Origin: Chrysochromulina tobinii
Taxonomy: Eukaryota; Haptophyta; Prymnesiales; Chrysochromulinaceae
Assembly (NCBI GenBank): GCA_001275005.1
Contig: JWZX01002605.1
Location: 1-62,587 of the forward strand
DNA: 62,587 nt
Direction of reading: 5' to 3'
A program made the position numbers and the translations under genes. This document shows, piece after piece, positions 29,649 to 55,200 of this stretch; positions within the stretch are counted from its first letter, which is position 1, and each line of letters begins with the position of its first letter. A model generated the notes under the pieces. The model saw only the letters and a program-made list of their open reading frames with translations. It made no database searches and was not told where the DNA came from.

Positions 29649-31302
29649 ATGCTCATCGCGGTCGAGGGCTGCGCACACGGCGAGCTCGACAACATCTACG
29701 CCTCGCTCGCAGCCGTCGAGCAGCGGCACGGCTGCAAAGTGGACCTGCTGCTCATTTGCGGCGATTTCCAGGCGGTGCGCAATGCGGCCGACCTTGCCTG
29801 CATGGCGTGCCCGCCCAAGTACCGTGCGATGCAGACCTTCTACAAGTACTACTCGGGCGAGAAAATCGCACCCGTGCTCACAATATTCATTGGTGGCAAC
29901 CACGAGGCTAGCGCGCACTTGTGTGAGCTGTGCTACGGCGGCTGGGCCGCGCCCAATATCTATTACTTGGGCAGCGCCGGTGTTGTCAACGTGGGTGGTG
30001 TGCGTATCGGCGGCCTCTCGGGCATCTACAAGAGCAACCACTACAACCAGGGCCACCACGAGCGTCCTCCCTTTGACGAGGACTCGATGCGTTCCTTTTA
30101 CCACGTGCGCGAGACTGATGTCTTCCGGCTGCGCCAGCTGCGCAAGCCGATGGACGTGTTCCTCTCACACGATTGGCCCCAGCACATCGCCAAGCACGGC
30201 GACACGCAGGGCCTCGTGCGCCGCAAGTCCTTCTTGCAGCCCGAGATTGCGGATGGCTCGCTCGGCTCGCCGCCCGCCGCACAGCTACTGCACGCGCTCC
30301 GTCCGCGTTATTGGTTCTCGGCGCATCTGCACGTCAAGTTTGCTGCGGCAGTCAATCATAGGGCTCTGATCAGCGGCGGCGCCGCCGCCGCCAGCACTGC
30401 CGCCAGCACTGCCGCCAACGCCGCCGCGGGCGCGAGCGCGGCTGCTACGAACGACGTGACCAGATTCCTCGCCCTGGGCAAGTGCAACGTCCGTGGCGAC
30501 TTCCTCCAGCTCGTCGAGATCGAGGGCGATGGGAAGTCGGGTCCCCACGTGCTCTGCTACGACGCTGAGTGGCTTGCCGTGCTGCGCGCCACGGCACATC
30601 TCGAGAGCGGCATACGTGGCCGCGTGGACCTCCGGCCCGCGGCGGTGGCTGCTGTCTCCAACGGCAGGATTGACTTTGGGCCCACCCTCGAGGAGGAGGC
30701 GGAGGTGCGGCAGCGCGGCGGCGTGGCCCTCGAGGTGCATCTGAACTTCGAGCTCGATCTCTGATCCCTCTGATGACCTCTGATCGCCTCTGATGACATC
30801 TGATGGTCTGCCTCATCAGGTGCCTCTGAACTTCGAGCCCACCGCGGCCGCCTACGTGCCTGGCGAGTCCATCGTGGCGCCGCAGACCCCCTTTGCCGAA
30901 CACCCGCAGACGCTGCTCCTCGTGCACAAGTTTGGGCTCGCGCCCGACTTTCGCACGCGGCGAGGCGCTACACAGCCGGATCTCGCACAGGCGGGATCGA
31001 CTGCCACTGCGGCTGGCGGCGGCGGCTTTGGAGTTGGCGGTGGAGGCAGCGGCGTGGGGGGCGGCTTTCGGCCGCCTCATCCGCCAGGGAGGCCCCCGCT
31101 TCAGCTGCCCGAGCCTGTGTCAGCCTCGCTGCCCGCACCGCCACCCCCTCCGTTCACACCCCCTCCGTTCACGGCGGATCCCGCAGGCTACGGTTACAAC
31201 CCGAGCCAGGCAGCCCGGTCGGCGCCGGCGCATGCGATGGGTTTGTTGGGAGCGCTGCCTGTGATGACACTCGACCAGGAGATTGACATTGACGACGATT
31301 GA
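29649..31302 (+). CDS. DBR1: RNA lariat debranching enzyme DBR1 (2 exons)
   Basis: Exon 1 is 29649-30734 (362 codons) and exon 2 is 30820-31302 (160 codons plus stop); total 522 residues, near the usual DBR1 size. The enzyme hydrolyses the 2'-5' branch of excised intron lariats in the nucleus. Metal-binding and active-site residues stand at the expected places: C8 and H10 in GCAHGELD, D39 in GDFQ, N84-H85-E86 in GGNHEAS, H174 in LSHDW, H226 and H228 in SAHLH. The family-specific [12 protein letters not shown] and APNIYYLG segments are clear. Exon 2 supplies the C-terminal DBR1 region ([22 protein letters not shown]) and a Gly/Pro-rich tail ending in acidic DIDDD. Its only detected intron is an introner-like one. 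Confidence 0.95.
30735..30819 (+). other. Introner-like intron in DBR1 (85 bp, phase 0)
   Basis: The donor is GAG then GTGCAT and the acceptor is CATCAG then GTGCCT; joining gives ALE then VPLNFEPT, the correct DBR1 continuation. A 22-bp segment at the 5' splice site (30732-30753) recurs at the 3' splice site (30817-30838) with 20 of 22 matches. Between them are about four CTCTGATGAC-like units. Retention would add a stop soon after the splice site (NFELDL then stop). Confidence 0.9.
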
Positions 31303-31711
31303 CATCTTTCATAGAACCTCCCACGAATACAAGGATCTTGGAAGTTTACCACCTCGTTGCTGTGGCCCCGGGCCTGGGGAATCTCTCAAGTGGTCTCTTT
31401 CTCGCTTGACTTTTTGCTTGACGCCGAATGCCACGTCACGTTACACATCTGGACATCACGCCACTAGCCGGCCGCCGTTGCTGACACATGAGGATGAGCT
31501 TGAAATGCACACCACGGTGCTGGACGGTGCTGGACGGTGTCCTCCGCTGTCGGGTGGTGTCTAGAACAGTACAGAGTATCCCGGTCGAGTGCGGTCCCTG
31601 TGTGACGAGCGTGGGGCGCGGCCTGTCCATACCGCCACCGGCCTGCTTGGACCCACACCCGTTGAGCTGAAACTTGCAAATTGCGCATTAAAGACGGTGT
31701 TCAGGCCATGC
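31303..31711. other. Intergenic
   Basis: Lies between DBR1 and the second Sel1/U-box copy. A short tandem of GGTGCTGGAC (about 31516-31536) is visible. No gene supported. Confidence 0.45.
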
Positions 31712-34232: not shown

Positions 34233-37200
34233 CTACAACACCGAACAACCGAGGCGATGGCAAAAGGAGACCCGCCTGATGTCGTGCTGCTCGCTTGCCT
34301 CGCCGGTTGCGGCCGTGAAGCCCACGTAGGCGCGATGAACCACGTCACCGGTCAGCGGGATGGGCTGCGTGCTCGGGTGCTCATAATTCACAGGCGGCCC
34401 CGCCGATTCTGTGGATACAGCCCCAGGCAGCATCTGTGAGATGTCGCAGCCACTGGCATCTGTCGCCGCGCCCCCGGCATCCGAGCTGGCGCCATCCCCA
34501 CTGGTCGCATTGCCATTGTTGGGGTTCATGCAGCCACTCCGCGGCGGCATCGGCAGCGTGATCGGCAGCGAGATCGTCGGGAGCCCCGTCTCACGAAACG
34601 AGATCCCCGTCTCATCAAAGTAAACGCTCAGCCGTCCTTGAGCGGGTGAAGCCGCCGCGGCTCCAGAGCTGGCGTTGACACTGGCGTTGACGGCGCGCGC
34701 GTGGCGCGCGGGCGGGAGGTATACGATCCTCACCTGATGCGGGAGGCAATCAAGGGCGTCATCAGAGATCATCAGAGGTCATCAGGAGGTATACGATCCT
34801 CACCTGATGCGGGAGGCAATCAAGGGCGTCATCAGAGATCATCAGAGGTCATCAGGAGGTATACGATCCTCACCTGATGCGGCTGGCCGTCATCTAACCG
34901 CTTCGGCTCCACGTGCCCTAGCAAGTGCTGCAGCAGATGCGCGTCGGCGGTGTTCACACCGTCGATGTAGACGGAGATTGCATGCTTGCGCTCCGCGACG
35001 AAACTGGACGTCACCTTGAGCGCCCCCGGCCGGCAGTTGCCGTCGGGGCCTTGATCGTTGCAGGTGGATGTCGTGACGGTACGGCCGTGGTGGTGGGTAT
35101 CAAATTGGATCGCCACACTCCGCGGGATGCCGCCACTCGTGCATCCCGGCACGCCCCCCGCTTGCGAGCCGGTAGCATACCCGACGCCGCTGCCCGCGCA
35201 CCCGACGGCGTCGAGGCCGATCGACTGCAAGACGACCGCAAAGCCTTCGCCTCCCACTCGACTCGGGCTGGTTGGGTCCGTGTCGGGTGGGCAGCGTAGG
35301 TCGGTCCGTGGCAGGTACGGGGCATTCAAGTTCGTGACCGGCAGCCGCTGGAACTGGCCGTAGCGGCCGTCTGGATTGGCCAACGGATGGGATGGGCCGA
35401 TACCGTAGGTTTCCTGCAGCTGCGGCGGCACTCCTTGCGGCGGGGGCAGTGGATCAAACGGAAGCGCCTCGGAATCGATCAAATAGTGCGTCAGATCGTC
35501 GCCGTTGGCCCTGAGCTCGTCCATCGAGATGAATGGCCGCTCCGCGCTGACGCGGCTGAGAGGATTGAGGCGCGCGGTGTCGTTGTAGCCAAACACTTCG
35601 TAGGGGCCAGTGCAGACTGAGGGCTCCGTGATGCGGAACGAGAAGTTGAGCTCGAAGCCACGCGAGTACGGCTGCGGCTGCGCCAGCCACAGCGTGCCGC
35701 GCTGGTACGTGTCGTTGGTGAGGCGAGCGACCACGTGTCCAGTATCGTCGCTCAGAAACTGTGTCGCGTGCCCAGCCTGCCAGCCGTTGACCGACGTCGA
35801 ATTGCACCGCGTGCAGCGGGCCGCACGCGCTAGGTAGGTGGTGCTCGCGCTGCTGGCCGCCTCGGCGGCCGCGGCGACCTGCTCGGCTGCTGCAGCGGCG
35901 GCAGCGGCGGCGGCCACCCTACCGTCTTCCTCGAGTGCGCTGATGGGGCCCGAGGCGGCGTCGGCCTCAGCTTCGGCGGCCTCTGCGGCGGCAGTCGCCG
36001 CGGCGTGGCGCATACAATCCGCCTCGCATGCAAAGCTCGCTGCGTCTGCTTCCCACCTGACCGTAAGTTCGAACGGCGTGAGCCGGTGCTGCGGCAAGTA
36101 GCTGTTGCTGTATTGAGCGCGGAACCCCGCGCCGTGAATGCCAATCACCCACTCCTCACAGGTGGCCACTGCACTACCGCCGCCCATCTCGGCGCCCCCG
36201 CTCATCTCGGCACCTCCGCTGCCCTCGGGATGGCAGTGCAGCTCGCTCGACGGGATCACAAGCGAGATCGGACTTCCCACCTTCTCCGCGATGAGATCGT
36301 ACCGCCCTGACGCATCTTCGGGCGCGGTGCGTCGACGCGCCAGGAGCCGCAGGCCCATGGACGAGAAACGCACGCTCAGCATGAGCCGCACGCCGCTGTG
36401 CGGTGGACGTACGCGGTAGTAGCGCATCTGATCAGGCAGCACGGCGCCCGTGGCGACGGCGCGCCCGAGGCCGTCGGTGGGCTCGGACACATTGGCGAAA
36501 GCGAGTGCGGCCGCCTGGGCGGCACTAGTGGATGGCAAGAGCATGCGTGTCTCGAAAGTCCACATGCGGCAGATGCCCTCAGCAGGCCCACGGCCGCAGC
36601 CGTCGGCGTGGCACGCGAAGCATCCAACCCGGTCCTGCACGACGCCGTAGGCGGTGTGGTCGAGCCCCAACGGCGACAGACGATCACGGCAATGGCCGCA
36701 GGAGGGGTTCGCGTTGACGCAGCCGACGACGTCGAGGGGATCGGCCACGGCCATCTGCTCACACGCGTACGTGTGCTGCAGCGGGGACGGATGGGTGGTG
36801 TGGAAGTCGCGCCCGTTGAGCGAGATCGCAACCTCGACGATGCCCGCCGGGAAGGGCGGCGTGCGGCAAAGCATGTGGCTCTCGCCCTTGTACATGGGCG
36901 CCGCCATCGCTACCACTGCGGATACGTGCTCATAGCCAAGCGCTGCCCCGGGCATCAGTGGCCGCCACTGCGCAAAGCGGCAGCGCGCGTCGCGTCGCTC
37001 GCCAAACACGTGCAGGTTCGTCCCCGCCACGCGTAGCTCAATGCCACCATGAGGAGGGCCGACGGCCGGCACGGCCTCGGTGGCCGTGACGCCCGAATAG
37101 AACGTAAAGAGGGGGGTGCGCACGTGCACAAAATTTTGGCCGTTGGCCGCCGCCGCGATGCGAACGGATGTGCGCCCCCGCGCCCCTGGCGGCGGCTGCG

Positions 37201-40200
37201 GCGTGAGCGGCGGCGAGCGACACACGGCGGCGGTGCCTCGAAAAAGGTCGACCGCAGCAAGGGCCATCGGCGAAGCGTACGCATCATGCAGCGCGAGAGC
37301 ACGGGGCGCGTCGCGGCATTTCAAGCCTCGCTGCACGCCGTGCTCATCGTAGCACAATCCGCCGAAGAGGCAAACCCCGAGCCCATCGCCATCGGCGGCG
37401 CCCGCCAACGCCGCGCCGATCTGCACGTCTGAGGCGTTGGCTCTGGTGGAAGCAGCCGCGGCCGCGGCGACTATGGCGGCGGCTCGTGCGGCGGCCGCGC
37501 GGGTGGTGCTACGGCGGCCGTGGCGGTTGAAGCCGATGCCGTACAGAGTAACGGGCGAGCCTCCATCAGAGGGCCCTCCAGTGGGCCACACCGCAGAGAG
37601 CTCTAGCTGCGTGTAGTAGTGGAATGGGAGGCCGAAGCCCACAGGGCTGAACTGCTGGCCGTTGATGGCCACCTGAACTTGGTAGCCGGAGCCCGGGTCG
37701 TAATTGAGGTCGTAATTGAGAGTGTTGGCGCCGCCTCGGAACGAGATGGTGGGAGGAGAGGGCAAGCAGCGCACGCCGCTCGCGTCCAGCTGCGTCACGC
37801 CGACGACGATCGCGTTGGCGAATCGGCAACGAGCGAGCGTGGCGTCGGTGTGATTGCCTGGGCGCAACCCATTGCCACGTACGCGCACTGACGTGCCACC
37901 TGAGATCGGGCCTCCCGAGGGCACAAGTGAGGCGGGCAATGGCTCCGGGTACACGTGGAAGGCATCGAAGGCGGTGGCCTTGGCTGTGGAGTTTGGAGAC
38001 GAAGAAGACTCGGCCGCTGCGGAGGCGGATCGCTCAAAATCGACCCCGTTCGGCGCGATGCTCACGAGAAGCGGCACAGCTGGCGGCCCCTCCTCGCCAT
38101 CGAGGCCGAGGAAGCTACCGTTGAATGGGGCCGTGGGCGCACAGACGAGCCACCGGCCGAACGGGTCCGCACGCAGCACGGACGTGCTTTGCAGAGGCTG
38201 AACGCTGCCATCCCCATCGTCGCTTCCCTCGACCTTGCTTCCAAACCCGCAGCGGGCGTCCTCCGCTGCCGAGCCCGCCGGGGCCAGCCCCGAGCCGCGG
38301 ATGGTCACGATGGTCCCTCCATGTGCCGGCCCGGAGCGCGGCTCCACTTTCGAGATCGTGAGCGCGGACGCATTGTAGAAGGCGAACGTGTGCGGCGCAT
38401 CCCCCGCGCTGTGGGGCTTCGTGGGTACCTCGAAGTCGATGGCATTCAGCGCGAGGCTGAGCCGCGAGAAGCAGACGTCGCACGGGCCGTCGGGGAACGC
38501 GCCGGGCGGCGGTGCGGGTGGCGATGGCGCGTCGGGCGGTGGTGCGTCGGGCGGCGGCTTGGCGTCAGAAAAGAGCGCCGGATCGCCATGCTCGCTGCTG
38601 GCGGCGTCGCTGCTGGCGGCGTCGCTACCATTCTCGCCACCACTCACGTCGGTGACGTTGGGCAGCGGCGCGTTCGCACAGGGCAAGGCTTCGCGCCCGT
38701 CCGCGCTGAGTACGCAGCACAGCAGTCGACACTCGTCAGGCGGAGCTGGCGTTGGAGTGGTCACAATCCGGACTCCGACAGCGTCCAACTCGCTCGCATT
38801 GAGTGGCAGCCGATACGAGGCGAAGGCCGCACTGCTCTCGTTGCCAGCGGCCTCGCCTCGCATGCGGGCGGCGCTCCGTCCGAACGGGTGGGCAGCCTCG
38901 ACGAGCGTTGTAGCCGCCGCCGATGAAACGTCGAGCGGCGTGCCGTCGACAGGATGCAATGGGAGCGTCGGGGGACCGAGCAGCGCCACGGAGATGGTGC
39001 CCACGCTCGCCCGCCCGCCGGCACCGAGTCGCAGTCCAGTGATCGTCAGAGGCGTGCCGCCGCGCACCGGGCCCGCCGTTGGTCGGATCCGTTGGACGTA
39101 CGGCGACTCGTAGAAATGGAATCGGGGAGCGGTGCTCAGATCCGCGGGCGAGTAGTCGATGCCGTTGAGCGACATGGAGACTGGGAGGGCCGCAGCGAGC
39201 CCTTGGGTGTTGCCGCCGGCGGTTAGGGTGATCGCCGAGAGCGGCGGCGTGGCGGCACATGCGATGCCGTCGGCGCCTGCAGTGGCAGCAATCGTCACGG
39301 CCGCGTCGCCACTGCCGATGCGACAGTTTGCGGCCCCGTTGGCGTAGGGTCCCCCGAGGATCGTGAACAACGTGCCGCCTCCGACGGGCCCAGCGGACGG
39401 ACTGATGCCAGCGAGTGCCAAGTTAGGATAGCAGCGCAGCATCACGGGGCCATCAAGGTCGACACCGTTGCGTGCAAACGACAGTGCCACACTGCAGTTA
39501 GCCTCCACGCCGCTGCCGGCGTCGCCGCTGCCTGAGCCGCCGGAGCCACAACCGCAATTAGGGATGGCCTCACATTCGACGACGCTATCACTCAGAGCCA
39601 GCACGAGCACGTCCTCCTGCATCGTGAGCGTGGTGGCTTGTGGCTTGTAGTAGCCAGCCTGGTAGGTGTAGCGACAACGCGCGAGATTCGTGGGAAGCCC
39701 CGGCGTCAGAAAGCCACTCCCATGAACGGTGAGAAGTGTGCCGCCGTCGACCGGTGCAGAGCTGGGCACGATGGAGGCGAGGGTGATGGACGTATACAGG
39801 AAGCTTCCCGCGACCACGACGTCAACGCCGCCGTTGAGGGAGATTCCCACTGTGACCGCGCCGCTTGCCGCCGCAGGCGATACGAACTGGATGCTGTCGC
39901 GAGACGCGCCGCGGACGATCGTGCTAGGAGGGACGCACGCGGAGCCTTGGCCAAAGACGACACACACTTGGAGGTCCTGAGGCAGAGGCGCGGTGATGAT
40001 GGACACGACAGTGCCACCACGAATAGGGCCGCCGGGCGGTTGAATGCTGCCGCTGCTGCCGCTGCTGCCGCTGCTGCCGCTGCTGCCGCTGCTGCCGCTG
40101 CTGCCGCTGCTGCCGCTGCTGCCGCTGCTGCCGCTGCTGCCGCTGCTGCCGCTTCCGCTTCCGCTACTACCGCTAGTGTCGCTGCTGTAGCCGCCGTTGC

Positions 40201-43200
40201 CATTCGAAACACCATCCCCCGCAGCGACGTCACTGCCCGCACCCGAACTCTGCTCCCCTGTGAGCGGGATGGAGATGGGCGCCCACACCCTAACCGCCAC
40301 ACCAAGGGGTGAGGCGTCGCGAGCATACCCGTTGAGCGTCAGATGAATGCCATGCATGCCGACTGGCAGCGGAGGGAGCGTGAAGTTGAGCTCTTCCGAG
40401 GAGTACTCGGTGATCGGAAACAGCTGGCTATCGAGGATGATGGCGGGTTGTGGCGGTGCCGCAGGCTGTGCATCCGCCGGTGCGCCTGGCTGCGAGCCAC
40501 CCGGCAAAGCCAGCGCCATCTGCACCGGTACCGGAAGCGCCATGCCCGTCCCCGCCAGACGGATACGTGTGCCGCCCGCGCTAGGCCCGGACGTAGGGGA
40601 GAGGGATGAGCCCACCGGCAGCGCGTGGAAGTAGAAGCGGCAAGGCGCCTCGTACTGCTGGCCATTAAGAGAGATGTCCACCTCCTGCCACCCTTCGCTC
40701 GCTGCCCGAGGGGATTTCAGCTCGAGCCTCGAGGCATTGCGAGCGAGGGGCGTGGTGCGTCGAGAGCCGATGCGTGCCGAGACGCCACCGGTCGCATCGA
40801 GAATGGTGATCGTCTGCCCCTTTGCTTCGGCAGCTTCGAGCGACTCAGCGACTGGAGCGGGCGCGCCCATGTCTTGGTAGAAGAGTGCCGTCGGCGTTCG
40901 AGCGCCGGGCGTAAAGTATAAGCTGCCCACCTCGACGCGCGAGTTGCGCACGCCGTCCGCCTCGAGGAGCTCGCCTGCCATGCGCCCGCCCCCGCTGATG
41001 GTGGAGATGATGAGCGGATGGCCGACGGCGTTCACATCGAACCGGTACGTGAGACCGCGCCGAAGGTGGAGTCGATGGTTGAGGATGCCGTTGACGACAT
41101 AGCCAAGGTACTGGCCGGAGATCTCGACTGCGGTCACGTGTACCACAGGCTGAGTTGGTAGCTCGCCGAAGGCATCGAAGCCTCGGCCAACGAGCGTGAG
41201 GAACGTGCCGCCGGTGATGGGGCCTACGGCAGGGGAGAGCGAGTGCGTCTCTGGACGAGGGTACGTACGGAACGTCACTGCGTACGCTTGGTCCTCGAAT
41301 GCCCGAGCCCCGGTGCCGTTGAGAGTTGGAGTGTACTCGCCGCGGTGGCCGTCGGCGGCATTGAGGCTCACCGCAAGACTTGAGAGGCCAGGCGCCAAAG
41401 AAGGAGGGGTGACGAAGGAAACGGATCGGGGAGCGATGCTCAGAGCCACGCCAAGATCGACGTGTGTAGCGCTCGAGCCGTTCTCACTCCTGGGACGGAG
41501 AAGCCCTCTCACCCCGTGCGCCACGCCGTGGAGCCCAAACCCGACGCCACGCACGGCCAAAAGAGTCCCGCCAGCTGTGGGTCCTCCAGATGGGGCGAGG
41601 GAAGAGAGCGCGAGGGTGTAGTAGCGGAATGCGAGCGGCACTGCGGCGGAGGAGTAGTGAAAGCCATCATTGAAGGTGAGAGCCACTTCGACGGAAGTGA
41701 CCCCCTCGCCGCCGCTGTCGGCGGTGTGAATCGGTGGCGGAGCGAGGCAGATGACGCGATGCGCCGAGGCAGCTAGTGATGGGACCACGAGCCCCCCGAA
41801 ACGACATCGGGTCGAATTCCGACGCATCAGGGCACCAGAGCCATTCTCAAGCGTCCCATCCGAAAGTGGGAAGGAGCCGAGTACTGTGACGGGCGTGCCG
41901 CCTTCGCTCGGCCCGCCTGCCGGCGTCAGTGAGCGCAGCGCGGGCTCCGGATAGTACTCAAAGCTCAAAGGTACCATGTCAGCATGTGCCATTGGGAGGA
42001 AGTCATCCGCGCGCAGCGAGATGCGCACCCCCACTGTCAGAGCTTGGCGGGAAAAGGAGGCGTTGGCCTGCTGGTTGAAGGCGGGCGGCACGAGGCATTC
42101 GATCCAGCCCTGTCCGCGCCGACGGGCTGGACGCACGTCGGCGCCAAAGGCACATGCGGCGCGGCCTCGAATTGAGGCGTTCGTTGAGGCGTTGTGAGGC
42201 TCGGCGGCGGCAGCGGCGGCAGTGGCCGCAGCGGCAGCAGCAGTTGCGGCAGCAGCGGAGGTGTCGTCGGGAGCGGCGGCATCGGAGAAGATGAGATCGG
42301 ATCTGGGATCTGGCAGGATGTGCAAGCCCTCGCCGTGCACGCGGACCGTGTAGCCACCTCGCACAGGCCCCGACAAGGGCGTCATCGCCGTCATCACCGC
42401 ATCGTACCGCATGAGCTCCAGGCCCGTCGGCTCTGCATCCGCATCAACCACGCCTTCGGGTCGCAGCCATGAGCGACGCACCCACGAGCGGCCGTCATCG
42501 ACGGAGACTTCCACAGCCTCGACGCCGCGGATTGGGAAGAGGGAGGCCCGCTGATCGGGCGGGCGTTGCATCGTTGCCGGCGGCACTGCACACGTGATCG
42601 CCTCATCCGACTTGGTGAGCGCTGGCACGACAGCCCAACGATGGGCGCCGTCACGGTCGCCGGGCCCAAATCGGCAGCGTGCTTGCCATGAAGCGCCATA
42701 CGCCATCAGCCTTGCACCGGTGAGGGTCAGAACAAGACCGCCGCCGGTAAGGGCTTCCGGCGGGTGGAGCGAGAGGAGGGTGGGGGGCTCGAAGAATGCA
42801 TACGTGAGAGGAACACCCCGGGTTTCAGCGCGCCGCCTCCCAGACGAAAAGTAGCCGCGCACTGGTGGGCCATGCTCTTCGTCAGCACCCCCGTCCACCT
42901 CCTCCGCCGCGTCCTCTTCGAGCCAGTCGACACCGTTGAGGGACACTCTCACTGGCACGATCCCAGCACCGTGGCTGCGTGGCAGTGCGCAAAGCAGCAC
43001 GGTGTCGTTGACCACGGTGGCTGGCGTGGCAAGTGCGGTCGCCCCAAACCCAAACTTGCAGAAGGCGCTGCCGCCATCAACCTCGCCTTCATCGCCCATC
43101 ACGGCGCCCGAGGCCGAGTGCAACACAGCCGCTCGGAGACCAGCTTGGAATACAGCTTCTTGCGAGGAGCCATGTAGAGCGCTGAACCCGCTCCCGATCA

Positions 43201-46200
43201 CGGTGATGATGCTACCGGCCGGAGGGTGCGCCGGGCCCCCGGTTGGGATGATGTCGGTCAGCGTGGGCAGAGGGTAGTAGATGAAGCCAAATGCTTCCTG
43301 CGCTGCCTCCGCGGCGGTCGTCTCGGTGGCTCCAAGAGTCGTTGGCATTTGGACACGTGCAAAGTCCTCTCCGTTGAGGGAGATGAAGAGAGGGACAGCA
43401 GTGACCTCGGAGGCGGCGATGGAGGAGGCCGTGAGATTGTTGACGAGCGGCGGCACGGCCGTCTCCGCCCACCCCGCGCCTTCTGCCGCGTCCACTTCCG
43501 TCTCGCCATCTGCCTGAGAGGCGAGCAGCACAGCCCGCCCTCCCACTACCACCCGTGTGCGAACCTGTGAAGGCAGAACCCTCGAGCCAGCAGACATGGC
43601 GGTGTCCGTGGCGGAGGCTGCGCTGGTCGAGTCAGCCGCTAAAGGCCGGTCCAGCCGGCACGCTGTGCCGGTCGAGTCGAGCGGGTCGCACGTGTTGGGT
43701 GCGCTGCACGTCACACTCCCGTCCGCGCGCGCACTAGCTCTTACGACCAGCCGCCCGAAGCGACAGAGCGTCGTCTCGAGCTGCCCGAACGAAGCCAACC
43801 CTCGTCCTTGCACGACCACCGTCGTGCCGCCGTGCGCAGGCCCTCCCCGAGGGGAGACGCCATGGAAGGCAATCGAGTAATACTGGAACGTGAGGGCGGT
43901 GCCCTCCGGGCCGGTGGCATCCAAGGCGGTGGCACGAGCTCCCGTTGAGACTTGATCCGTAGAAATGGTGTCCATGGTGGCAATGGTGGTGCCCGCCGTC
44001 GCAAAGGGCAAGTAGTCCACCCCATTCAGCGTCACATCAACGGTCGCATGGCTCGAGAAGCCCTCAGGAGCGGACGGCACAACGCACTTGAGCACGCGAG
44101 AGCTCCGGAAGATGACGGGAGTTGATGCCGTCCACGCTGCTGGCCATGGCGCACCCAAATCGTCGGACCCCCCGGACAAGTAGCCTGCCGCGCCCCGGCC
44201 GGCGAGCGCCGGCGAATGAGAGGGCGGCGGGGCGTAGCGGAAGCGACAGAGCTCATTGCCAGTCTCTCTGGAAGCGGAGGAGGCCATGGTTGCGTTGGGC
44301 ACGGAGTCGAAGCCCTCGCCTCGCAGCGTGAGCAACGTCCCTCCACCTGTTGGCCCACCCGTTGGATGCAGCTCCGCCAGAGAATAGTGAAAGTAGCGGA
44401 GGGTGCCCACAGGATGGTAGTCCTGATCGTTGAGAGTGAGAGACACGTCAACGGTCGGCGGCACAGGGGAAGCGGTTGAGGCGATCTCCGCCGCAACGGC
44501 GGAGATGGCGGCTTCTTCGACGCGTCCGGAGGAGGTAGAAGAGGCTCCGACGCCGCTGGCCACGTACAGGTCATCGGACCCCGCTGCCACCCTCGCCCAG
44601 ACCACCGCCGCTGCCGGTACACGGCACAGCATCCGTGCCGGTCCCTTGCGCATAGGGCGTACCGTCCGAGTGCCAAAGCGGCAGCGGCTCGTCATCAGAT
44701 CTCCAAAGGTCCCCAGATTGGTAGCGTCGATGGTCAGAACGGTGCCTCCCGTCGCCATGGCGAGCTGCGGAGAGAGGGCCTGGACGATCGGGGACGGATA
44801 GTATGTGAAGTTGACTGCCGAGACAGCGTCGCCGGAGCTGAGCTCGGCGGGAGCGCCGTCCCGGCCGTTGAACGTCAACTGCACGGCAACCGAAACGTTC
44901 CCATCCATGCATTCCCCACAATCTGAGCAGTCAGTGTGCGCCGCGCAGAACGGCGGCACGTCGCATAGCCCATCCATGGACCAGAAGCAGCTATTATCGG
45001 CAGCAGAGCTGTCCGCAGCTGCCCTCGCCATCAGCCTCGCGGCCGTTGGGAGCTCAGGAGTGATGCAGACGAGCCGCGTCGCATTCTGCACCACAAGGGG
45101 CGCCACTTGCTCGCCCAGCATGCATCTCTGCGTCTCGACGTACCCAGCCAGCTGGACGGCATCCACGGCCTCCCAGCCCTCCAGTGCTGTGGAGATGCGC
45201 AAGCCGAGGACGAGGGGGGACGACGTCGAGTCAACGTACCCTTCGACCACGGCGCTGCATCCCAGTCGCGCCGCGCCGGCACAGCTGCATGGCTTGACGC
45301 TGCCACTCGAGTTGAAGGGGGCCGGTATGCGCTCGCCTCTCAGCCCGATGAGCTCCACTGTCATCACTGCCGCCGGGTCGGTAGCGAGCAGCACGCGCCA
45401 TCTCCATGGGCGCACCGGCCGCGCGAAGCTCACCTGGAGCCAGTCGGGAAGGTCGGTCCCGAGGGCCGGCATCCAAGCCAACGGCTCAAGCCGCTCTCGC
45501 ATGCATCCTGTGGCATCTGGAGGGCCGGCAGCCCGGCTCGCGGAGCCATAGGCGTCGCTGTACTCGGAGCGTGCGGTGGCCGCGGCGGCCCATTGCTCGA
45601 GGTAGGTGTCCTCCTGAGCTACTGGCCGAAACCCCTCACCGCTGATCGTGATGATTGTGCCGCCGCCCATGGGCCCTCCACTGGGCATCACCCGTTGCAC
45701 TACGGGTGCTGCCCATCGATCAAAAGGTAGTTCTCCTTGGAAGTCAATGCCGTTGAGAGCGAATTGAACCAAGTAGCGACCGACGAGGGTGGTCGAAGGG
45801 AGTGTGAAGACGAGATGGGTGGCGTCCAGGGACTGGAAAGGCTGTGCTGCGCTCCACTGCTCGCCTGAACCAGCTGCTGAGGGAGCCGAGAGGGCAGCGG
45901 CAGCGCTCGACAGTTGCCCGTCGGCCTGAGTTCCCGCCGTCAACGACGTCGGGACGAGGCTCAGGCGCCAACGAGGTTCCAGTGGAACGCCCCCATTGTC
46001 CAGTCCCAGCCCTCCGAGCGAATCAAAGCCGCGCCCATGCACCGTCACCAACTGCCCGCCGTGAAGGCCGCCGCATGTGGGTGCGATGGAGTCGAGCGCT
46101 GCGGCGTAGAAGGTGAAGATAACGGCACTAGAATTGGAGGTGACATTGGCCACGTCTGCTGAGGCCGCCGCCGCGCTGTGATAATCTTGCCCATTGAGCG

Positions 46201-49200
46201 CGATGGCAAAGGCGGCGCGCCCCACCGGATGGGTCATGGGCCCGCGCCGCCGCGGAGGGGTGGTGCACAGCACGTACGTGTCGTTCTGGAAGTACGCCGG
46301 TGTGAAGGTGTCAGCTCCAAAGCGGCATGTGGCAGTGTGAAGCCCGACCAGTCCGGCAAACCCCGTGCCGCTTACTGTCACGTTGGTACCGCCCAGCACG
46401 GGGCCGGCCGTTGGCCATAGCCTCGAGAGAACGGGTGGGGTGTAGTAGCGATACGTGATGGCTTGATAGGTCACGTGAGGGTCGTCGCCCACGCCGCCAA
46501 ACCACAGCGTGCCGTCCATGCTCGCTTGCAACTCGACGGTTTGGTTGAAGGCGACGGGGGGCGTGCGACCGTAGAGGGCGGCGTCGGTGGCGTGATCCAG
46601 ATGAGCGCCGTCATCACGAGGATCGTCACGCATGTAACCGACGATCTCGAAGCGGCTCAGATTGCTCGGCGGATACGGCGACGTGGCCGAGGCGCTAATG
46701 GTGGTCGTGTTGCCGCGGCCGGTGCTGCTGCTGCTCAGAGCGACGGCGGCGAGCCGCTCCTGTGCACGCAGCATGTCAGAGCTGCCCAGACGCCCGCGGT
46801 CCGATCCAAGGCGCTGAAAGTCCAGGGCCGTGTTCCCACTCTGCGCCTCCTCCTCTGCCTCCGCTTCGAAGTCCTGCTCCAATCTCCTGCCTCCGGTCGT
46901 CTCGACTGCCTCCGGTCTCCGGGAGTCGCCGCAGTAACTGACGCACGTTGGATCGCCCGGTGGGCGTGGAAGCCGATACGTGTACAAGGTGGAGGCGCCG
47001 TTGTCGAAGCTGCAAGCGCAACTGAGCACCTGCGTCCTCCACAAGCAATCGGACCAGCTAAAGGCGAAGCAGACCGTCGACAGTTGCGGAGCTGCACCTG
47101 CGGCCGGGTGGGCATCGAGTAACCATCCCGCGGCCTCGCTGCCACAGCGCTCACCAGCGCGAGGAGCCGTGTTGAGCAGGCGCTTGCCGGCGGCACCGGT
47201 GAAGCGATACCAGGTGGCATTGTCCAAGCTGCCGTGCAGGCTGATGGGCGAGCGCGCCGCGGCAGAGGATGACGACGACGAGGCGGCGCCATTGTCGCAC
47301 ACAGCCGTGGAGCTGGCCGCGGCGCTGCTGGGCCCGATGGCCGCCTCGGCAGTGGCAGACTCGTTGGTCAGCCGTCTCCAGCCCTCGTTGAGCTCTGTCA
47401 CCTGCTTAACCGACCGAGGGCACTCGGCATGGCAGAGCGGCAGCATGGCGATCCCCAAGCCCACCTCCTCCTTGGCGAGCCAGGCGCCCTTGGGTACGTA
47501 TCGGACCTCACGCATGGCGCCCAGCCCGATCCCGTGGAGCGTGATCGACGAGTTGCCCACGGTGGGCCCGCCGAGAGGCGAGACGCTCTGAAGCGTCGGC
47601 GGGAGGTCCTTGAGATGGGCCGACTCCGGCAGGCTACTTGTCCGCAGTGCCATCGCGAGCTGCGAAGCCTCTTCGTCGTTGTCCGCAGAGCCCCTCGCGA
47701 GCAACGCTCTTCGGCGGGTGGCGCCTGCAACGTCATCCCAGTAATTGCCAGCCGTCGCGTTCCCCATATTGTACGCGTCGTAGCGCGGCTCAGCGGGTGG
47801 GGGAGGCGGGGGTGGCACCGCCTCGAGTACAGCTTCGCCCTCGAGGCCGAGCGCCGCGTCAAGCGGCTCATACGACAGCTGCCAGAGCTGCCGTGCGCTC
47901 TCGCCCGATACGGCGCTCATGAGCACCCGTCGCCGGCCCGAGTCAGCCCACAAGAGCGCCGCGGCATTCCAGGAGGTGCTCGCGCCTAAGGCGAGATCGG
48001 AATCTCCTTGGGCGAGATCGGAATCTCCTTGGGCGAGATCGGAGGCTTCGAGGCTCGCCCCAGCCGTCGCGCCGCTCGCGCCGCTGACGCTGGCGGCGTT
48101 CACGGTGGAGCCTTCGCTGGCCTGCGGCGCCGTGGCCGTAGAGAAGGCGCTGTGGCGGGCGGCGGCAGAGTCGTAACCAACAACCCCTTCGGAAGCGCCC
48201 CGATCGGCGGCAACGGCGCCGGCTCGAAGCTCCGGTAGGTACCTGCTGCCTGCATGGTCGAGCGAGAACCCAGCGGGGACTGCCGCCGCCCCGGATGCCA
48301 TACCCACGTCTCCCTGCACGATCACGATGCACTCAGAGCCATCCAGCCCGCACCGGTAAATGGCGCGGGAGGCGGCGACGCTATAGAAGAGGTGCGGACC
48401 GAAGGTCGTCAGCGCGGAGGGGGCGATGCCCCGCTGGATGGTGAGCACGGAGACGCGGAGGGGGGTGGCGTCGGTCGCGTGCGCCTTCTCCTCGGCGACC
48501 ATGAGCAGCGACGCATTGCCAGGCTGGCTGACGGACACGTACGCGGCGTGCACCAGACCGTCGGCGCTCACGACGGCGCCAACAGCACGTGAACCACGCG
48601 GCAGTGAGGACAGCACCACCTCGCGCCCGCGCCCGTCGAGGAAGCTTCGCTCGATCTTACAGCCGCCGCCCGGCGCGATCGCCGTCCAGTACAGCCGCGC
48701 CGTAGGCCGATGCAGAAAGAGGCTGTCCGCCTGCGCGCCCACCGGTATGCCCTCGAGCCACACGGCGTTCGCGAGAGCGTCGGCCGCCTCCTCGGGCTGC
48801 GTGGTCACGCGGCCGCCAGCGATCCTGGCGCCGGGGGCGTCTGCAAACCGGTAGCGCCGCAGCAGACCCGAACGCAGCACGTACACGCGCTTGTCGAGCG
48901 TATCCATTGCCAAATGCGAGCGCCCATCGATGGGCAGGGCGCGAAGCACCGTCATCTCCGCCTCCCAGGCCGCGAGCGCCTCCGCCGCCGCCTCGTACTT
49001 AACGCGCGCAGTGCGCTCGCGCGCCGCCGCACGTGCGGCCGTCGCCTGCGCCTGCACAATCTCCCACGATCTCGAGGCGCGGTCGGCGAGCGTCGCCTCG
49101 AGCGCGGCCGCAGCGGCCCGGCGTGCCGGCTCGGCGCCTTGGGTGAGCTCCTCGAGCATCGCCTCGCGCCGCGCGACGAGACGAGTCTGCAAGTCGGAGA

Positions 49201-52200
49201 GGTCGCGCGCCCGCTGCACCACCGCCCCACCAGCACATGCGTGCCCCGCGCCGGCACTCGCAGTCGCGGGACCACCCGCCGTGTGGTGGCATCCCCACAC
49301 GTGCACCAAGAACTCGTTGCGGTACTGAAAGAGCACCGGCGGCGTGAAGCCCGTGTAATCGATCCCATTCAGCGCGACAGCCAGCTCGACGGAGCCCATG
49401 CACTCGGAGCGCATGCAGCGCGGGGCACGGCAGCGCATCTCAAGGTGTGAACGGTCGGGGCGCAGCGGGTCCGCACTTGGCACCAAGACGAGACGAGCTG
49501 GCGAGTTGCCCGCGAGCCCAAAGCGGCAGCGCAGCAGGCTGCCCTCGTCGGCGTCGGGCGCTTGGGATGGCGGCGCCGCCGATTCGTTGAAGCTCGATGC
49601 GCCGTCCTCGTTCGTGGGAGCAGCGGCTGCCTCTGCGAACATTTGGGCAGCTTCGACGAGATCTGGCGCCAAAATGGCGACCTCCACCTCCTCCTCGGTC
49701 CCTCCGAAAAGCGGCGAGATGGTCGCGTTGGCCGGCGCGGGATAGTACGAGAAAGCGCCGAGATGGGCGGCGTCCACAAAGGTCAGCCCGTCGAGGGCGA
49801 GAGAGACGGTGCGCGCCTCGCCCGGCTGCCACGTTGAAGGCATCGGCGGCACGTCGCACGAGATCGCGCGGCCGTAGGGATCGATCCACGAGACGGATGT
49901 GAGCACGTTGCCGAGGCGGCAGCGCGCGACCGTGGCGTCGGCGAGGCACGCGTGTAGCCCGTGGCCGCGGAGCGTCAGCGTCGCTCCGGTCGAGGGGCCA
50001 CGAAGAGTGCGAGCCGCCGTGAGCTGTGGCTGGCGGAAGTAGACGATCGGCACGGAGGTGTTCTCAAAGGTCATGCCGTCGAACGAGAGGCGTAACGAGA
50101 TTCGCTCGTTTGGGGTTCGGCTCGAGAGCAGCCGCATCGCGCTCGCGTTCGGCAGCGGTGGCACTTGGCATCGGAGTCCGGCCGAATTGTGCCGCAAGGC
50201 GCGCGAGATGCCCCTGTCGAGCGGCATACCGTCTACGAGGAACTGACACATCACCACCGAGGCGAGGTCGTCGCCGAGCAGATCGATGCTTGTGCCACCC
50301 TCGAGTGACACGCCCGGTGGACGGGAATTCACTCCGTACGCGGCCGAGATGCTGAGACCAAGGCCGCACCCGTGCCCGCTCACCCCGCAGCCGCCGCCCG
50401 CGAACATGGACGTGCCCAAGCGCAAGGGCGGCTGATAGCGGCCGTACTCTAGCGCGTCAGGGCCCAGGGCCGCCATCGCACTGATGTTCGGATCCGCGGC
50501 GGAGCATGAGCCGATGCGGAGCGCCAGTCCGCCGAGCCACCGAGTACGCTGCTGCGGCGGTGCGATCGGTGTGCCGTCGTGAACGTACGGAGGCAGAGGG
50601 CACTGCCGTACGACGAGACTCGGCGCTCCGCCGATGGGCATCGAGCGATAGCCCTGTGTGCCGTTGAGATAGCCCTCGGTGATGGTTGCTCCCTCAGCGA
50701 CCGCGGCCGCAGCCACGGCGGCCTCCTCGGAGAGCTGCAGCTGCCGAACCAGCCGCCCACGCTCCCGCTCCTGAAGCAGTCTCGCCACGTGGCCTCCTCC
50801 CTGATTCGATCGTAACTGCTCCATCATGGTGGTCTCCGCCGCATCCCTCTCAACTGCACGTGCCATGACCTCGGCGGCCTCCAACCCCTCTGCGACGGTG
50901 CCCCGCTGCAGGAAGAGCACACGGTCCATGCCCAAGTCGAGCATCGGCCCAAAGGGCTCGCCCTCGACGAGCTTCGGATGTGCGCCGAGTGCCAGCGCGG
51001 CCGTTGAGTATGCTGAGGAGCCTCGGGCGGTGCGGATGCCGCGCCATCCCGCCAATGATGATGGATGTAACCCGACGACCGGCGGCTGCGCTTGGCCTGT
51101 ACCGGGCGGCCTCGGCCACGCAAGGGTCACGCCAATGATGGGCGGGTCGGAGTAGGCTGGCGTCCCTGGTGCTTGACTGGAGTCGATCATGGTCAGGACA
51201 AACGCGCGGCAGTACATCTTGTCGAGGTCGGTGGCAGTCGGGTTGAGACAGTCAGTCCATTCGCCACTGTAATCCTTGCCCAGCGGCGTGGAGAAGCTGA
51301 AGATCGCATCCACCTCGGGTTTGGTCAGCAGCTTGCCTCCTTCGCTCGTATGAACGTCGAACGTGAGATGAAACTGGTCGCCGTCGCCAAATTCTACGTC
51401 GCCATTCATCGGGTCTGCCGGCACAAAACCGACGAGGCGCGGCGCCTCGGAGGTACCGAATGTGCCGCTGAGCGTCAGGTTGGTCTGGACGGCGTACGCC
51501 TCTGGAGGTGAGGGTCCAGAGGGACCACCGCCCGAGGGGATTGTGGCGAGGCGTGCGAACTCCGATCGGATGACGCCCGGCTTCAAAGTGACTCTGGTGA
51601 TGCCCACGAGCAGGCGAAGCACGCCGCCCTCCGCCTCCGGCACGTCTCCGATCGTGCCGCCACCAGAGTCGCCCACCGTGAGCTGATAGGTGGACATGTC
51701 GAGCCAGCCGCGACCCGTGTCGGGCGCCAGCGGCGGATCGAAGTCGAAAAAGTCGAAAACGTCGCCCGGCGGCCGATCCGTCGGCGCGTCGAAGAGGAGT
51801 TGCATGCGGTCACCCTGCGCGGGCCTGGCCCCGGCGCAGGCTGTGCTCACCTGATGGCAGAGGTAATCAGGTACTCAGAGGTACTCAGAGGTACTCAGAG
51901 GTACTCAGAAGTCATCGGCCCGCATCAGGCAGTGCTCACCGGACTCCCACCGTACACGGCCTGCATCGTCGGGGTCAGTGGAATCACCTCCGTTGGGCTC
52001 GTTGGGACAGGGCCGCAAGCATCCACGGCACGAAACGAGATCAGTTGCGGTGCGAGCCTACCGCCGAAGCGGCCGGAGACGGTCGCCTCGCGCGCGAAGG
52101 GGTCTTGCGATGCAAAGGCGTCGGCGCAGCGCACTTGCTGCGACCCCGGAGCGCAGACACTGCAGCACGTGGCGGTCGCGGCACGGTTGAGGAACATGCG

Positions 52201-55200
52201 CGACGTACGCACCCTGGTCAAGCCCACCGTCGGCCGGGTGGTTTGTGTATTGACCGCCGTGACGGCGAACGTGGACGTGTCCTCCCACTGGCCCGTGTAC
52301 TCGTTGCCCAGGTGGTGGTCAGTCTCGAAGATGCTGTCGATGTACGCCCTGCCGCCGGAGACGCCCCGACGACCGTCGTCGGTTGAACGATCGAAGACCA
52401 TGCGGATCACGTCTCCACCCGACCACGCCGTGTTGAAGTTGTCGTAGTCGGACACGGTCGCGCTCTCGAAGACGGGCGGGCCGGGCTTGCCAAAAAAGGT
52501 CTGGCCGAGCACAAGCTCGCGGTTGACCGGGTCCGACGCGCCAAAGGACGAGCGGATCTGGCTTTCCGGTTTGATCCGCATCTTGGAGGGGACGCCGAAG
52601 ACTTCGTGGGTCCAGCTCGGGTTGCCGCTCAGGATGGTGACCACTAACGTCATGTTGTCCGGTAAGAAGCGCGCCGTGTACAGGTCGCCGATAGACGGTG
52701 TGAAGGCCAGAAAGAAGTTTGCGTACGCCATGGTGCCCTCCTGGGGGGGCGGCGGGCGGGCGGTGAGTCCGCGACTCGTCTTTCGGTCGAAGAGGATTCT
52801 AATCGTGTCGCCCGCGCTCGGCACGCTGTCCGAGTTGTCGGGGTCGGTGCCCGAGTATGAGACGACCCTTGGCGCTTGCTGCCGTTCGCCCCAGTCGCCC
52901 GTGAGCGGCACGCGGTCGTCACACCGCGGGGACTGGCGACCGAGGGAGCGTACGTCGCCGAGGACGCGCACCCAGATCGAATCTCGTGTCATGTACTTGC
53001 CGTCCAAGCCCATGTACGCGTCCGAATTGATGACCGGCATGCGATTCCACAAGCGGCCGCGCGAGTCGGTACCGATGCGCGCCGTCCGGTCGAGGACAGT
53101 CATCACGAAGGTGGAATCGTCTGTCCAGTAGCCCTCGTAGTTACGTCCAAACGAGGGCACGCGAATCGCCGCCTCGTTGGGCGCGAAGTAGTCGAACTCG
53201 AAGAGCGCGTGGATGGCAGCGGCGTCGTAGCGCAGCCCGGTGGCGCCGGCTGTCCTTGGCCGAAACGGGTCATCATTCCCTCGGGAGCCCTGGCGCCCGA
53301 TGTAGGTGGGCATATTGAACTTGAACGTGAGAATGTCGCGGTCGGAGTAGATGAAATCCCCGTTGTCTGGATCGGAGCCGTTGACCCAGAGCAAGCGTGG
53401 CTTGGCATGCGTGCCGAGGCTGCCTCTGATGCGCAACGCCTGCGAGGCCGTGCGTGGGGCGACAAAGTCGAGCCGGTTCGCCGACCTGAGTGGGGCATTG
53501 TCCGCGAGCCAAAAGCGCGTCGTCGCATCGAACGTGTCGTTGATCTGCGGCGCGGGCAGGTACCCATCGCGCACGTGGACCCGGAAGGTGGAGGTGTCGA
53601 GCCACCGCCCGTCATACTCGATGCCCAGCGGCTCGGACACGCTCAACACCGAGTCCACGTACTCGCGAGGCTGCACCCCCCCTATCAAGTCCGTCGAGAT
53701 ATTCGTCGGTCGGTCGAAGAAGAGAGTCAGTGTGTCGCCGCTCCCAAACTCGAGGTCGCCCGCATCGGGATCGTCCCCAACGACCGCCGCGAGCAGTGGC
53801 GCCACGCGTGGGTCCTTTCCAAAATCGGAGCGCGGGGAGATGATGGGCGCCGTGGTGAGCACTTGCATGCACGGCAGGTCATCAGAGTGGCAATCAACGT
53901 ACCTTTCCAAAGTCGCCCGCGAGCCCCTCGGCCGTGACGACCACGTGCGCGGAGGTGTTGCCGCGCATCGACGGGTGGATGCGCCGCGGGTGGGAGAGCT
54001 GGTAGACAGGCAAGTCGCTCCTATACGAGTCAACGGTCGCGTTGAAGTCGGCGTAGGACGCGCGGAAGAGCAGATGGCCAGAGGCGGAGGTCCAGTAGAG
54101 CAGCGCATGGATCGGGTCGATGGCCAGGCCGGTGCAGAGCGCATCACGTACGAACTCGAGCACGGGGATGCGCGCTCGCAAGCCGCCCAGGAAGATGCGC
54201 CGTCGTGAGCGCTGGCACCAGAAGACAAGGTCGCGCCGCCAGTCAACGACGAGCCTCGAGTCCTCATCAAACCAGTCGGCAGGGTCGGCACCATCCTCGG
54301 GCAGAGCCCTCCCGTCGACCAGGTGCCGCCTCCCCAAAGTACCGTCCTCTCGCGGATCACTCTGATTGTAAAAGTGGATCGCGTCGTCCTGGGCTTGCCA
54401 CTGATGGCCCGGCGCCGGCGCGGGCGCCGACAGGTCGAGCAGCTGCGGCACGCGCGTGCCGTCGTAGAAGACGAGCAGCTGACGATCCCGGCTCGAGTCG
54501 AGGCCGAGCTTCCACAGGGAGGTCTCCCCCTGCGACTCGTTGCCGAACTTGAGCACGCGCACGTTCGTCGCGACATACGAGCGGGGAAGCCGGCGCGCTC
54601 GGCCGTTGGCCACTCGGTCCGCCGGGGCTGAGATAAGGGATCGATGTGCCGCGGCTGTCTGTGCCGTGGCAGCTTCGCTCTGGGCCACCGCGGCGGCGGC
54701 GTACTCGCTGTACGTCTTCGTAGGATCCAACGGCGGCGGATCCACCAATCCCACCAGAGTGGCCGTGAGCAGGTGGCCCTCTTGGGTGGACCAAAAGACC
54801 TCTGAGGTATGCGCCCGGAGCAGCGCGGCGGTGACGCGTTGCGTGCCCACTTGCGCGTGAGTCGGCAGCAAGGCCTCGTAGGCTATCCTCTCGGCGGTCA
54901 CGTTGGGCAGCCCGATCGTCATGTTGATTTCTACGCCGTTCCTCAGGTACACGAGCCTGGTGCCGTTGGCGTCGGTGATGTTGGTCGCATTGGGCTCCAT
55001 AGGGTAGTTGCGCATGGCCTCGGCGAGCTCACGGCGGAAGCGCGCCGCCGCGTACTCGTGCACGGCCGAGCGGGCTAGCAGCGCGAGGGGCAGCTGGCTG
55101 ATCGTGGAGAGGCGCCAGGTGGCGTTCGCGTCCGCGACCGCGTCGCCGTCCTCCGTGGGCACCCAGTGCATCAGCCGAGCCCCATTCGCGTCCCAAAAAA

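What the first reader, a model, noticed from the sequence alone, without database searches (positions are those of the whole stretch)
30735..53902. A family of short introner-like introns flanked by long direct repeats
Four intron positions in two unrelated genes on opposite strands (DBR1 30735-30819; giant gene 34734-34873, 51851-51939, 53815-53902) share features that ordinary introns in the same window (kelch, Mic10) lack. They are 70-89 bp per unit and all phase 0. A 13-28 bp direct repeat spans both splice sites, so the intron's first bases copy the next exon's first bases or the donor and acceptor flanks match. They carry CTGATGACC-like or CTGAGTACC-like units in the sense orientation. 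Introner elements with target-site duplications are known from Micromonas, Aureococcus and other algae. Here the repeats are longer than typical duplications, so tandem duplication around an AGGT site followed by growth of a simple repeat is an equally good model. Either way, these look like recently gained introns.
Basis: partly seen in the sequence, partly recalled or inferred. Interest (0 to 1): 0.93.

Follow-up and report, generated by a model that had tools for sequence, protein, structure and literature searches.

The report
Intron-making insertions with long duplications
In this uncultured alga, probably a haptophyte, many short introns look newly made by insertion of a small splicing cassette or a 10-base-repeat array that left a copy of 12 to 46 bases of the host gene on both sides, and for one of them a related strain still shows the empty site.

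Summary
The four segments behave as introns: removing them restores open frames. The 10-bp unit (CTCTGATGAC) has 11,688 near-matches in the own genome, reversed control 4; its 3' end has 3,393, control 3. A second, sequence-unrelated cassette (GCATGCAAGTGCTCACCACGGC...CCCCACAG) has 2,061, control 0, with the same layout. In a typical copy the intron starts with a 14-46 bp copy of the next exon's start, then comes the cassette with AG, then the exon itself.

Splicing out seven such introns restores 1,206 aa of one VPS9/LRAT gene; four restore WASHC5. A metagenomic contig of a close strain shows an empty site: one 25-bp copy where this genome has two around a 50-bp cassette. A 99%-identical WASHC5 reading frame appears to lack two of the four introns.

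These are recently gained, introner-like introns. They differ from earlier-described introners by long variable duplications (3-9 bp reported), by lacking inverted ends in family 2, and by decamer arrays, a class the published survey filtered out. 'All phase 0' and plain AGGT tandem duplication are not general. The inserting machinery is inferred, and no RNA was available.

The parts
29649..31302 (+). DBR1 (lariat debranching enzyme) gene; exons 29649-30734 and 30820-31302
   Evidence: Spliced open frame of 522 aa; Pfam DBR1 C-terminal domain aligned across the junction; homologues
30735..30819 (+). Introner-like intron, family 1, 85 bp; intron 5' end is a copy of the next exon's start
   Evidence: site uninterrupted in the 12 relatives aligned
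30733..30753 (+). Upstream copy of the 21-bp direct repeat (AG + GT...)
   Evidence: 20 of 21 identical to 30818-30838
30818..30838 (+). Downstream copy of the direct repeat, spanning the acceptor and exon 2 start
30759..30805 (+). Decamer array (CTCTGATGAC)n inside the intron
34734..34873 (-). Giant-gene intron: two identical tandem 70-bp family-1 units (34804-34873 then 34734-34803)
34715..34882 (-). Three identical copies of the 28-bp repeat: 34855-34882, 34785-34812, 34715-34742
51851..51939 (-). Giant-gene intron, family 1 with CTGAGTACCT units, 89 bp
51837..51940 (-). 15-bp direct repeat copies 51926-51940 and 51837-51851, 14 of 15 identical
53815..53902 (-). Giant-gene intron, mixed: CTGATGACC units plus family-2 core; the duplicated sequence (53903-53915 and 53815-53827, 12 of 13) lies upstream of the donor and at the intron 3' end and supplies the AG
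   Evidence: Read by eye, rechecked; weak on its own
53849..53870 (-). Family-2 core GCATGCAAGTGCTCACCACGGC
   Evidence: 2,061 near-matches genome-wide
34233..57760 (-). Giant gene carrying three of the introns; exons: up to 57760 down to 53903 (start codon not determined), 51940-53814, 34874-51850, 34233-34733
   Evidence: Open frames joined in phase 0; no homology search was made for it

Best explanation
These are spliceosomal introns gained recently by insertion, part of a genome-wide burst. Each event puts a short piece carrying splicing signals into an exon. The piece is a family-1 decamer array ending ...CTGATTGCCTCCCTCATCAG, or a family-2 cassette ...TGCTCAC...CCCCACAG. The event leaves a 12-46 bp duplication of the exon around the piece. 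When the duplicated stretch starts with GT, the upstream copy becomes the intron's 5' end and donor and the cassette supplies branch point and AG (type A). When it ends in AG and the insert starts with GT, the roles are mirrored (type B). Splicing removes one copy plus the insert and restores the original mRNA. Afterwards the decamer array grows and shrinks by slippage. SHOWN: the structure, two families, restored frames, sites that read through in relatives, and one empty/filled allele pair. INFERRED (about 45%): a break with long staggered ends is filled in and joined with a captured fragment of an existing intron, and selection keeps insertions that splice. Ragged 5' sides with 1-2 nt overlaps or filler, variable duplication length, mixed-family inserts and both types fit this. 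Branch points are inferred from motif only.
For: Genome-wide counts against reversed controls. Flanking repeats far above swapped-flank nulls. Anchored copies of the downstream exon start: 16 of 54 family-1 and 5 of 17 family-2 3'-end candidates score 12 or more, against 0 of 971 swapped pairs; at least two of the 16 are a tandem-unit or antisense shadow, not an exon copy. In 20 further family-2 sites chosen by the core, 12 have repeats of 14-46 bp (null 2%), 8 of the 12 with GT/AG in register. Splicing seven introners gives a 1,206-aa frame where the unspliced frames have 14, 8 and 18 stops, with VPS9 and LRAT domains across junctions. WASHC5 with four introns is restored; blastn shows exon overlaps of 30, 28 and 34 bp at three of the four. 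Empty site: L071:4260-4284 single copy against C608 11516-11540 and 11591-11615 around a 50-bp cassette, flanks 76/79 and 128/130 identical. L071 keeps the next presumed intron, and its single copy matches the upstream copy 25/25 and the downstream one 24/25, so it is not cDNA of this allele. P0126 (99%) reads through J1 and J2 but runs into intron 3. Three-decamer length difference in one array between strains.
Against: No transcript data, so splicing is inferred from frames and domains. No clear repeat was found at 8 of 20 family-2 sites, 30 of 68 arrays, and 38 of 54 plus 12 of 17 3'-end candidates; age, nesting and background pattern matches may explain this but were not separated. Thousands of copies of two cassettes look more like a dedicated mobile element than like accidental capture. 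The test for copying from neighbouring introns was negative (p 0.12-0.13). The single empty site lies on a chimeric contig, phage-like DNA joined to 375 bases of this alga. GT/AG in register leads the next dinucleotide pair only 24 to 22. Of 28 splice models I sent eight to Pfam; four of the eight matched no family.
Confidence: 0.78

Rival explanations
1. RNA-templated version: the 3' portion of excised intron RNA is reverse-transcribed at a nick (target-primed), giving a fixed 3' end (AG), 5'-truncated ragged start and variable-length duplication.
For: Type A copies keep an exact 3' end (..CACAG or ..CATCAG directly before the duplicated GT), while the 5' side starts at different points, with 1-2 nt overlaps or filler (by eye). 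Variable duplication length fits target-primed copying (recalled). In the six genes modelled (DBR1, giant gene, WASHC5, VPS9/LRAT, kinase, transporter) 17 of 17 introners lie in sense, though the models were started from the motif strand.
Against: Type B copies (L038 introns 3 and 4, L040 intron 4) end without an AG of their own, so the 3' end is not always fixed. Family-2 duplications reach 46 bp, long for this mechanism (recalled). No enzyme was sought.
Confidence: 0.25
2. Non-autonomous DNA transposon (MITE-like introner) whose transposase makes unusually long duplications.
For: Two families with thousands of matches; clean empty/filled pair; family-1 unit CTGATGA and end TCATCAG are inverted repeats of each other (by eye); published introners mostly look DNA-transposed (PMC9860276, section 4 read).
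Against: Family 2 shows no terminal inverted repeat by eye. The duplication length is not constant (14-46 bp), whereas transposase duplications are near-fixed (recalled). The 5' boundary of the insert is ragged. No transposase was sought.
Confidence: 0.2
3. Plain tandem duplication of an AGGT-containing exon piece, then growth of a simple repeat.
For: Duplications spanning AG|GT, and local array growth. The giant-gene 140-bp intron is a tandem doubling of a whole unit.
Against: The same cassettes recur at thousands of places. The empty site lacks the 50-bp cassette altogether.
Confidence: 0.04
4. Old introns that later acquired a microsatellite; the direct repeats are chance or conversion.
For: Decamer arrays do vary in length.
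Against: Sites read through in the 12 DBR1 relatives aligned and in ten WASHC5 relatives at each junction; perfect duplications of 27, 28 and 46 bp; an empty allele.
Confidence: 0.03

Closest known systems
Introners / introner elements of algae (Micromonas, Aureococcus, Florenciella, Chrysochromulina; Gozashti et al. 2022, PMC9860276)
   Same: Many similar introns at new positions; duplicated target supplies one splice site while the element supplies the other; mRNA length usually restored; mostly aquatic organisms
   Different: The paper cites 3-9 bp TSDs for previously characterised families and shows 4 bp in its Chrysochromulina example; here 12-46 bp and variable. TSD lengths of all its 548 families were not seen. 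Similarity here does not reach the intron 5' end, which is a local exon copy. Decamer arrays would fall under the low-complexity families it removed. Abstract and sections 4, 17, 23 read
Direct repeats near intron borders (Rogers and Bendich 2025, PMC11782384)
   Same: Reports direct repeats of 4-30 bp (mean 11.4) at or near borders of all 213 introns examined and reads them as insertion duplications
   Different: No cassette family and no empty alleles in the abstract; here repeats are tied to two shared cassettes, tested against swapped flanks, and reach 46 bp. Abstract only
[quoted passage not shown]
   Same: Direct repeats left by filling of staggered ends, inserted filler becomes intron
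   Different: Daphnia repeats are described as short; no genome-wide insert family is mentioned in the passages seen. The Daphnia paper itself not seen
[quoted passage not shown] Hellsten 2011; PMC4974935)
   Same: Duplicated exon piece with AG|GT, identical mRNA after splicing; a 24-bp duplicated segment is cited in fission yeast
   Different: Here a non-local cassette sits between the copies and provides the acceptor. Passages of PMC4974935 seen
Amoebophrya introners (PMC7789003)
   Same: Repeats overlapping the exon/intron borders, repeated introns
   Different: There 3-5 nt direct repeats, 8-20 nt inverted repeats, mostly non-canonical sites; here long duplications, GT-AG, and family 2 without inverted repeats by eye. 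Passages seen
Fungal introner-like elements (PMC4457414; reviewed in PMC3443670 and PMC9860276)
   Same: Multiplying near-identical introns
   Different: Described as lacking TSDs and predicted to fold stably; the 7 sequences folded here have z-scores from 0.82 to -1.50. Search listing of PMC4457414 and passages of the other two only

Membership tests
Introner (intron-generating element, broad sense) | Many introns sharing sequence across unrelated genes | tested here: met
   against reversed controls; several unrelated genes
Introner (broad sense) | Positions newly gained, absent from relatives or from other alleles | tested here: met
   Relatives read through; empty allele at one site; P0126 at two sites
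[quoted passage not shown]
   In type A copies the first 14-46 bp are a copy of the local exon
DNA-transposon introner | Terminal inverted repeats | tested here: inconclusive
   Family 1 has CTGATGA/TCATCAG; family 2 starts GCATGC and ends CCCCACAG, no inverted match (by eye)
DNA-transposon introner | Target-site duplication of short length (3-9 bp in previously characterised families) | tested here: not met
   12-46 bp, variable
Tandem-genomic-duplication intron | Intron derived only from the duplicated local exon | tested here: not met
   A 50-bp non-local cassette lies between the copies
Double-strand-break-repair intron | Flanking direct repeats plus inserted filler | tested here: met
   the repair pathway itself is not testable here
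Spliceosomal intron | Removed from mRNA | not testable with these tools
   No transcript data; restored frames and domains only

The most novel reading that the evidence does not exclude
A new route of mass intron birth: the mobile unit is little more than the branch-point-to-AG end of an existing intron (about 40 nt), inserted at staggered breaks or nicks by a repair- or RNA-templated process with 12-46 bp duplications. The duplicated exon is then recruited as the intron's 5' half and donor. Two unrelated cassettes use the same route, so the route, not a transposon family, is the cause.
Probability: 0.4. Interest if true: 0.92.

Novelty: new variant of a known kind. Interest (0 to 1): 0.83.

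Why it matters
How new introns arise is a long-open question, and clear recent cases are few. Here there are thousands of candidate sites in two unrelated families, with readable duplications in about half of those examined, an empty allele at one site and a near-identical read-through allele at two more. The age of an event can be read from its duplication. The long variable duplications, and the published survey's exclusion of repeat-rich introns, suggest that a class of intron gain has been overlooked. The case is directly testable from existing environmental reads.

Tried and rejected
Local copying from neighbouring introns: array bodies are not significantly more alike within a contig (permutation p 0.12-0.13 for three word lengths). 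Family-free scan for GT..AG direct repeats: muddied by the arrays and by scanning both strands, so not used as a count. Conservation of the CT(G/A)A core in the decamer: dropped as evidence, because my extraction pattern required those letters; only the next base, T in 29 of 30 arrays, was free. Stable RNA folding as in fungal elements: not seen. Viral carriers: of 23 IMG/VR loci found by short patterns (searches found none) 22 match no more than the core; the other, L071, is a chimeric contig. A second allele of WASHC5 in the own assembly: none found. Organism by SSU rRNA: not completed; the haptophyte label rests on Prymnesium parvum being the highest-ranked DBR1 with an organism name (57%). 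Papers PMC12130899 and PMC12166617 (later introner work) are not held and were not read.
Full report
What was checked. DBR1 30735-30819 begins with GTGCATCTGAACTTCGAGC, and the exon after it begins with GTGCCTCTGAACTTCGAGC. The giant-gene intron 34734-34873 is two identical 70-bp units with a 28-bp repeat present three times. The 51851-51939 intron has a 15-bp repeat with one mismatch. The 53815-53902 intron has only 13 bp with one mismatch, read by eye, placed upstream of its donor. In the DBR1 protein the intron falls inside a conserved stretch (L.VPLNF..TA.AY) that is uninterrupted in the 12 relatives aligned, chosen from the 120 listed of 2,920 found. The highest-ranked hit with an organism name is Prymnesium parvum (57%), so the organism is probably a haptophyte; the SSU rRNA search did not complete.

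Genome-wide family 1. The 17-mer CTCTGATGACCTCTGAT (up to 2 mismatches) has 5,737 + 5,951 places in the 53-Mb assembly, against 3 + 1 for the pattern read backwards. These are places, many per array. The 3' end TGCCTCCCTCATCAGGT has 1,644 + 1,749, against 3 + 0. I held 278,706 bases: the window, 20 contig starts taken at regular intervals, and stretches of three contigs chosen by the motif. In these, 68 arrays were found (36 in the 20 unselected contigs, 8 in the window, 24 in the selected stretches) against 5 in reversed sequence. Of the 68, 38 have a flanking direct repeat scoring 11 or more and 25 score 16 or more; swapped-flank pairs give 3.5% and 0.5%. Some of these repeats are array units themselves rather than exon copies. 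On 41 repeats found by a gapless search, GT/AG in register is the commonest of 256 dinucleotide pairs (24; next pair 22; CT/AC 14; mean 4.1). Among 26 repeats that are not array-like it is 17, next pair 14, CT/AC 7. Neighbouring pairs are not independent, so I treat this as supporting, not decisive. The decamer carries CTGAT or CTAAT, which resembles a branch point; that reading is inference, and the count of its conservation is circular for the first four letters.

Genome-wide family 2. A motif seen in the third giant-gene intron, CATGCAAGTGCTCACCACGGC, has 988 + 1,073 places against 0 + 0. It sits in introns of the same layout, typically ending CCCCACAG, mostly without a decamer array. L040 carries one with a perfect 27-bp copy of the next exon's start. 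For a further sample I took 20 sites from the first 100 places that one search lists, chosen by the core, one per contig. Of these, 12 have a flanking repeat scoring 12 or more (null 2%), 14 to 46 bp long, one of them 46 of 46 identical. GT/AG lies in register in 8 of the 12, GC/AG in one, two need a small indel to align (by eye), and one has neither. In the other 8 sites I saw no clear repeat. Where the cassette starts right at GCATGC, four of four left junctions share 1-2 nt with the exon; other copies have extra filler (by eye).

Do they splice? No RNA was available. In L038 (minus strand) seven introns within 2.2 kb all contain these families, some nested or mixed. Splicing them gives one open frame of 1,206 aa through all seven junctions, while the unspliced frames have 14, 8 and 18 stops; I chose donors by the repeats, and corrected one by a base. 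Pfam VPS9 and LRAT domains are aligned across junctions. In L040 four introns split WASHC5; splicing restores it, and Strumpellin matches at 8e-114 and 2e-79 on the pieces covering junctions 1 and 2. A blastn search of the spliced gene against the own genome gives exon overlaps of 30, 28 and 34 bp at junctions 1, 2 and 4, and 5 bp at junction 3, with one locus only. A protein kinase (L042) and an amino-acid transporter (L043) are likewise restored. Eight of 28 splice models were sent to Pfam; four had no match. Many of the other models have short frames, at least partly because neighbouring introns were left in. Phases 0, 1 and 2 occur.

Are they recent gains? I aligned 12 of the 120 WASHC5 hits listed (466 found). 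At junction 1, ten relatives cover the site and read through. At junctions 2, 3 and 4, ten relatives read through (partly a different ten); P0143 departs about 20 residues before junction 2. In the L038 gene, with five hits in all, P0241 reads through six of seven sites and P0242 and P0243 through five each; P0245 is too diverged to judge beyond the first sites. Some relatives may be transcripts, so this shows the ancestral protein rather than intronless DNA in every case. P0126 is 99% identical, 18 members, contigs up to 35 kb. It reads through junctions 1 and 2 and then runs into intron 3, as an unspliced DNA reading frame would. P0001 and P0244 likewise end in, or read through, introns of this species, which suggests that such database proteins are called from unspliced DNA. 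The strongest case is L071, an IMG/VR contig whose last 375 bases belong to this species or a close strain. It has the 25-bp GTGCGAGCTCGTGGCGAGCGTTACC once; the own genome (C608 11516-11615) has it twice around CTGCATGCATGCAAGTGCTCACGACGGCGCCCGCACCCCTCTCCCCACAG. The insertion is 75 bp; flanks are 76/79 and 128/130 identical. L071 retains the next presumed intron, so it is DNA. Its single copy matches the upstream copy exactly, so it is not the spliced product of this allele. In that next intron the decamer array differs by 30 bp, three units.

How it most likely works. Shown: presence against absence of a cassette together with a second 25-bp copy in one case, and the same anatomy in many. Inferred: a staggered break with long overhangs is filled in and joined with a captured intron fragment; selection keeps products that splice. 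Repair of breaks with protruding ends is known to give tandem duplications, occasionally with templated inserts (PMC5730883, passages read). The bare family-2 cassette is about 40 bp and the shortest intron in my list of 25 type A copies is 64 bp. Copy length and remaining length are negatively correlated in that list (Spearman -0.70), which partly follows from a near-constant intron length. Selection for a minimum intron length could therefore favour long duplications. That list was entered by hand and is not exhaustive.

What it is not. Plain tandem duplication cannot supply a shared cassette. A standard DNA transposon would be expected to have fixed ends and a near-fixed short duplication (recalled). 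Copying from a neighbouring intron was not supported. Stable folding was not found. No search for a transposase or reverse transcriptase was made.

Known context. The 2022 survey of introners cites TSDs of 3-9 bp for previously characterised families, shows a Chrysochromulina family with 4 bp, and removed low-complexity families (PMC9860276; abstract and sections 4, 17, 23 read). Direct repeats of 4-30 bp at intron borders have been reported for 213 introns (PMC11782384, abstract), so long border repeats as such are not new. I found no description of the combination seen here in searches of the open library, of which I mostly saw listings. Later introner papers (PMC12130899, PMC12166617) are not held, so the claim of novelty is limited to that library.

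Noticed in passing
   Followed up: yes
L071:1-4554: IMG/VR 'viral' contig that looks like a chimera: phage-like genes by eye joined to 375 bases of this alga (4180-4554)
   Followed up: partly
L038 minus strand 4494-4704 and 5938-6140: Composite introns in which family-1 arrays, exon duplications and a family-2 cassette are nested, as if new introners landed at or inside older ones
   Followed up: partly
L045:4081-4111 and reverse strand 5952-5994: Different decamer-like arrays (CACTCGGTGG/AGTGGCACTC) on both strands, with 14- and 50-bp repeats and no GT..AG pair in register; nature unclear
   Followed up: no
window 7910-8543 and 31777-32774: Two arrays of 108-bp coding repeats (Sel1-like by eye); the second is followed by a U-box-like stretch near 33330 (recalled motif, not searched)
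   Followed up: no
proteins P0001, P0126, P0244: Public protein collections hold truncated or read-through proteins of this species because introns were translated (P0001 ends in the DBR1 intron; P0244 includes a 78-bp intron in frame)
   Followed up: partly
L072 (C608) against L071: The neighbouring intron differs between strains by three CCCTGACGAA units and by 14 bases at its duplicated donor copy
   Followed up: partly
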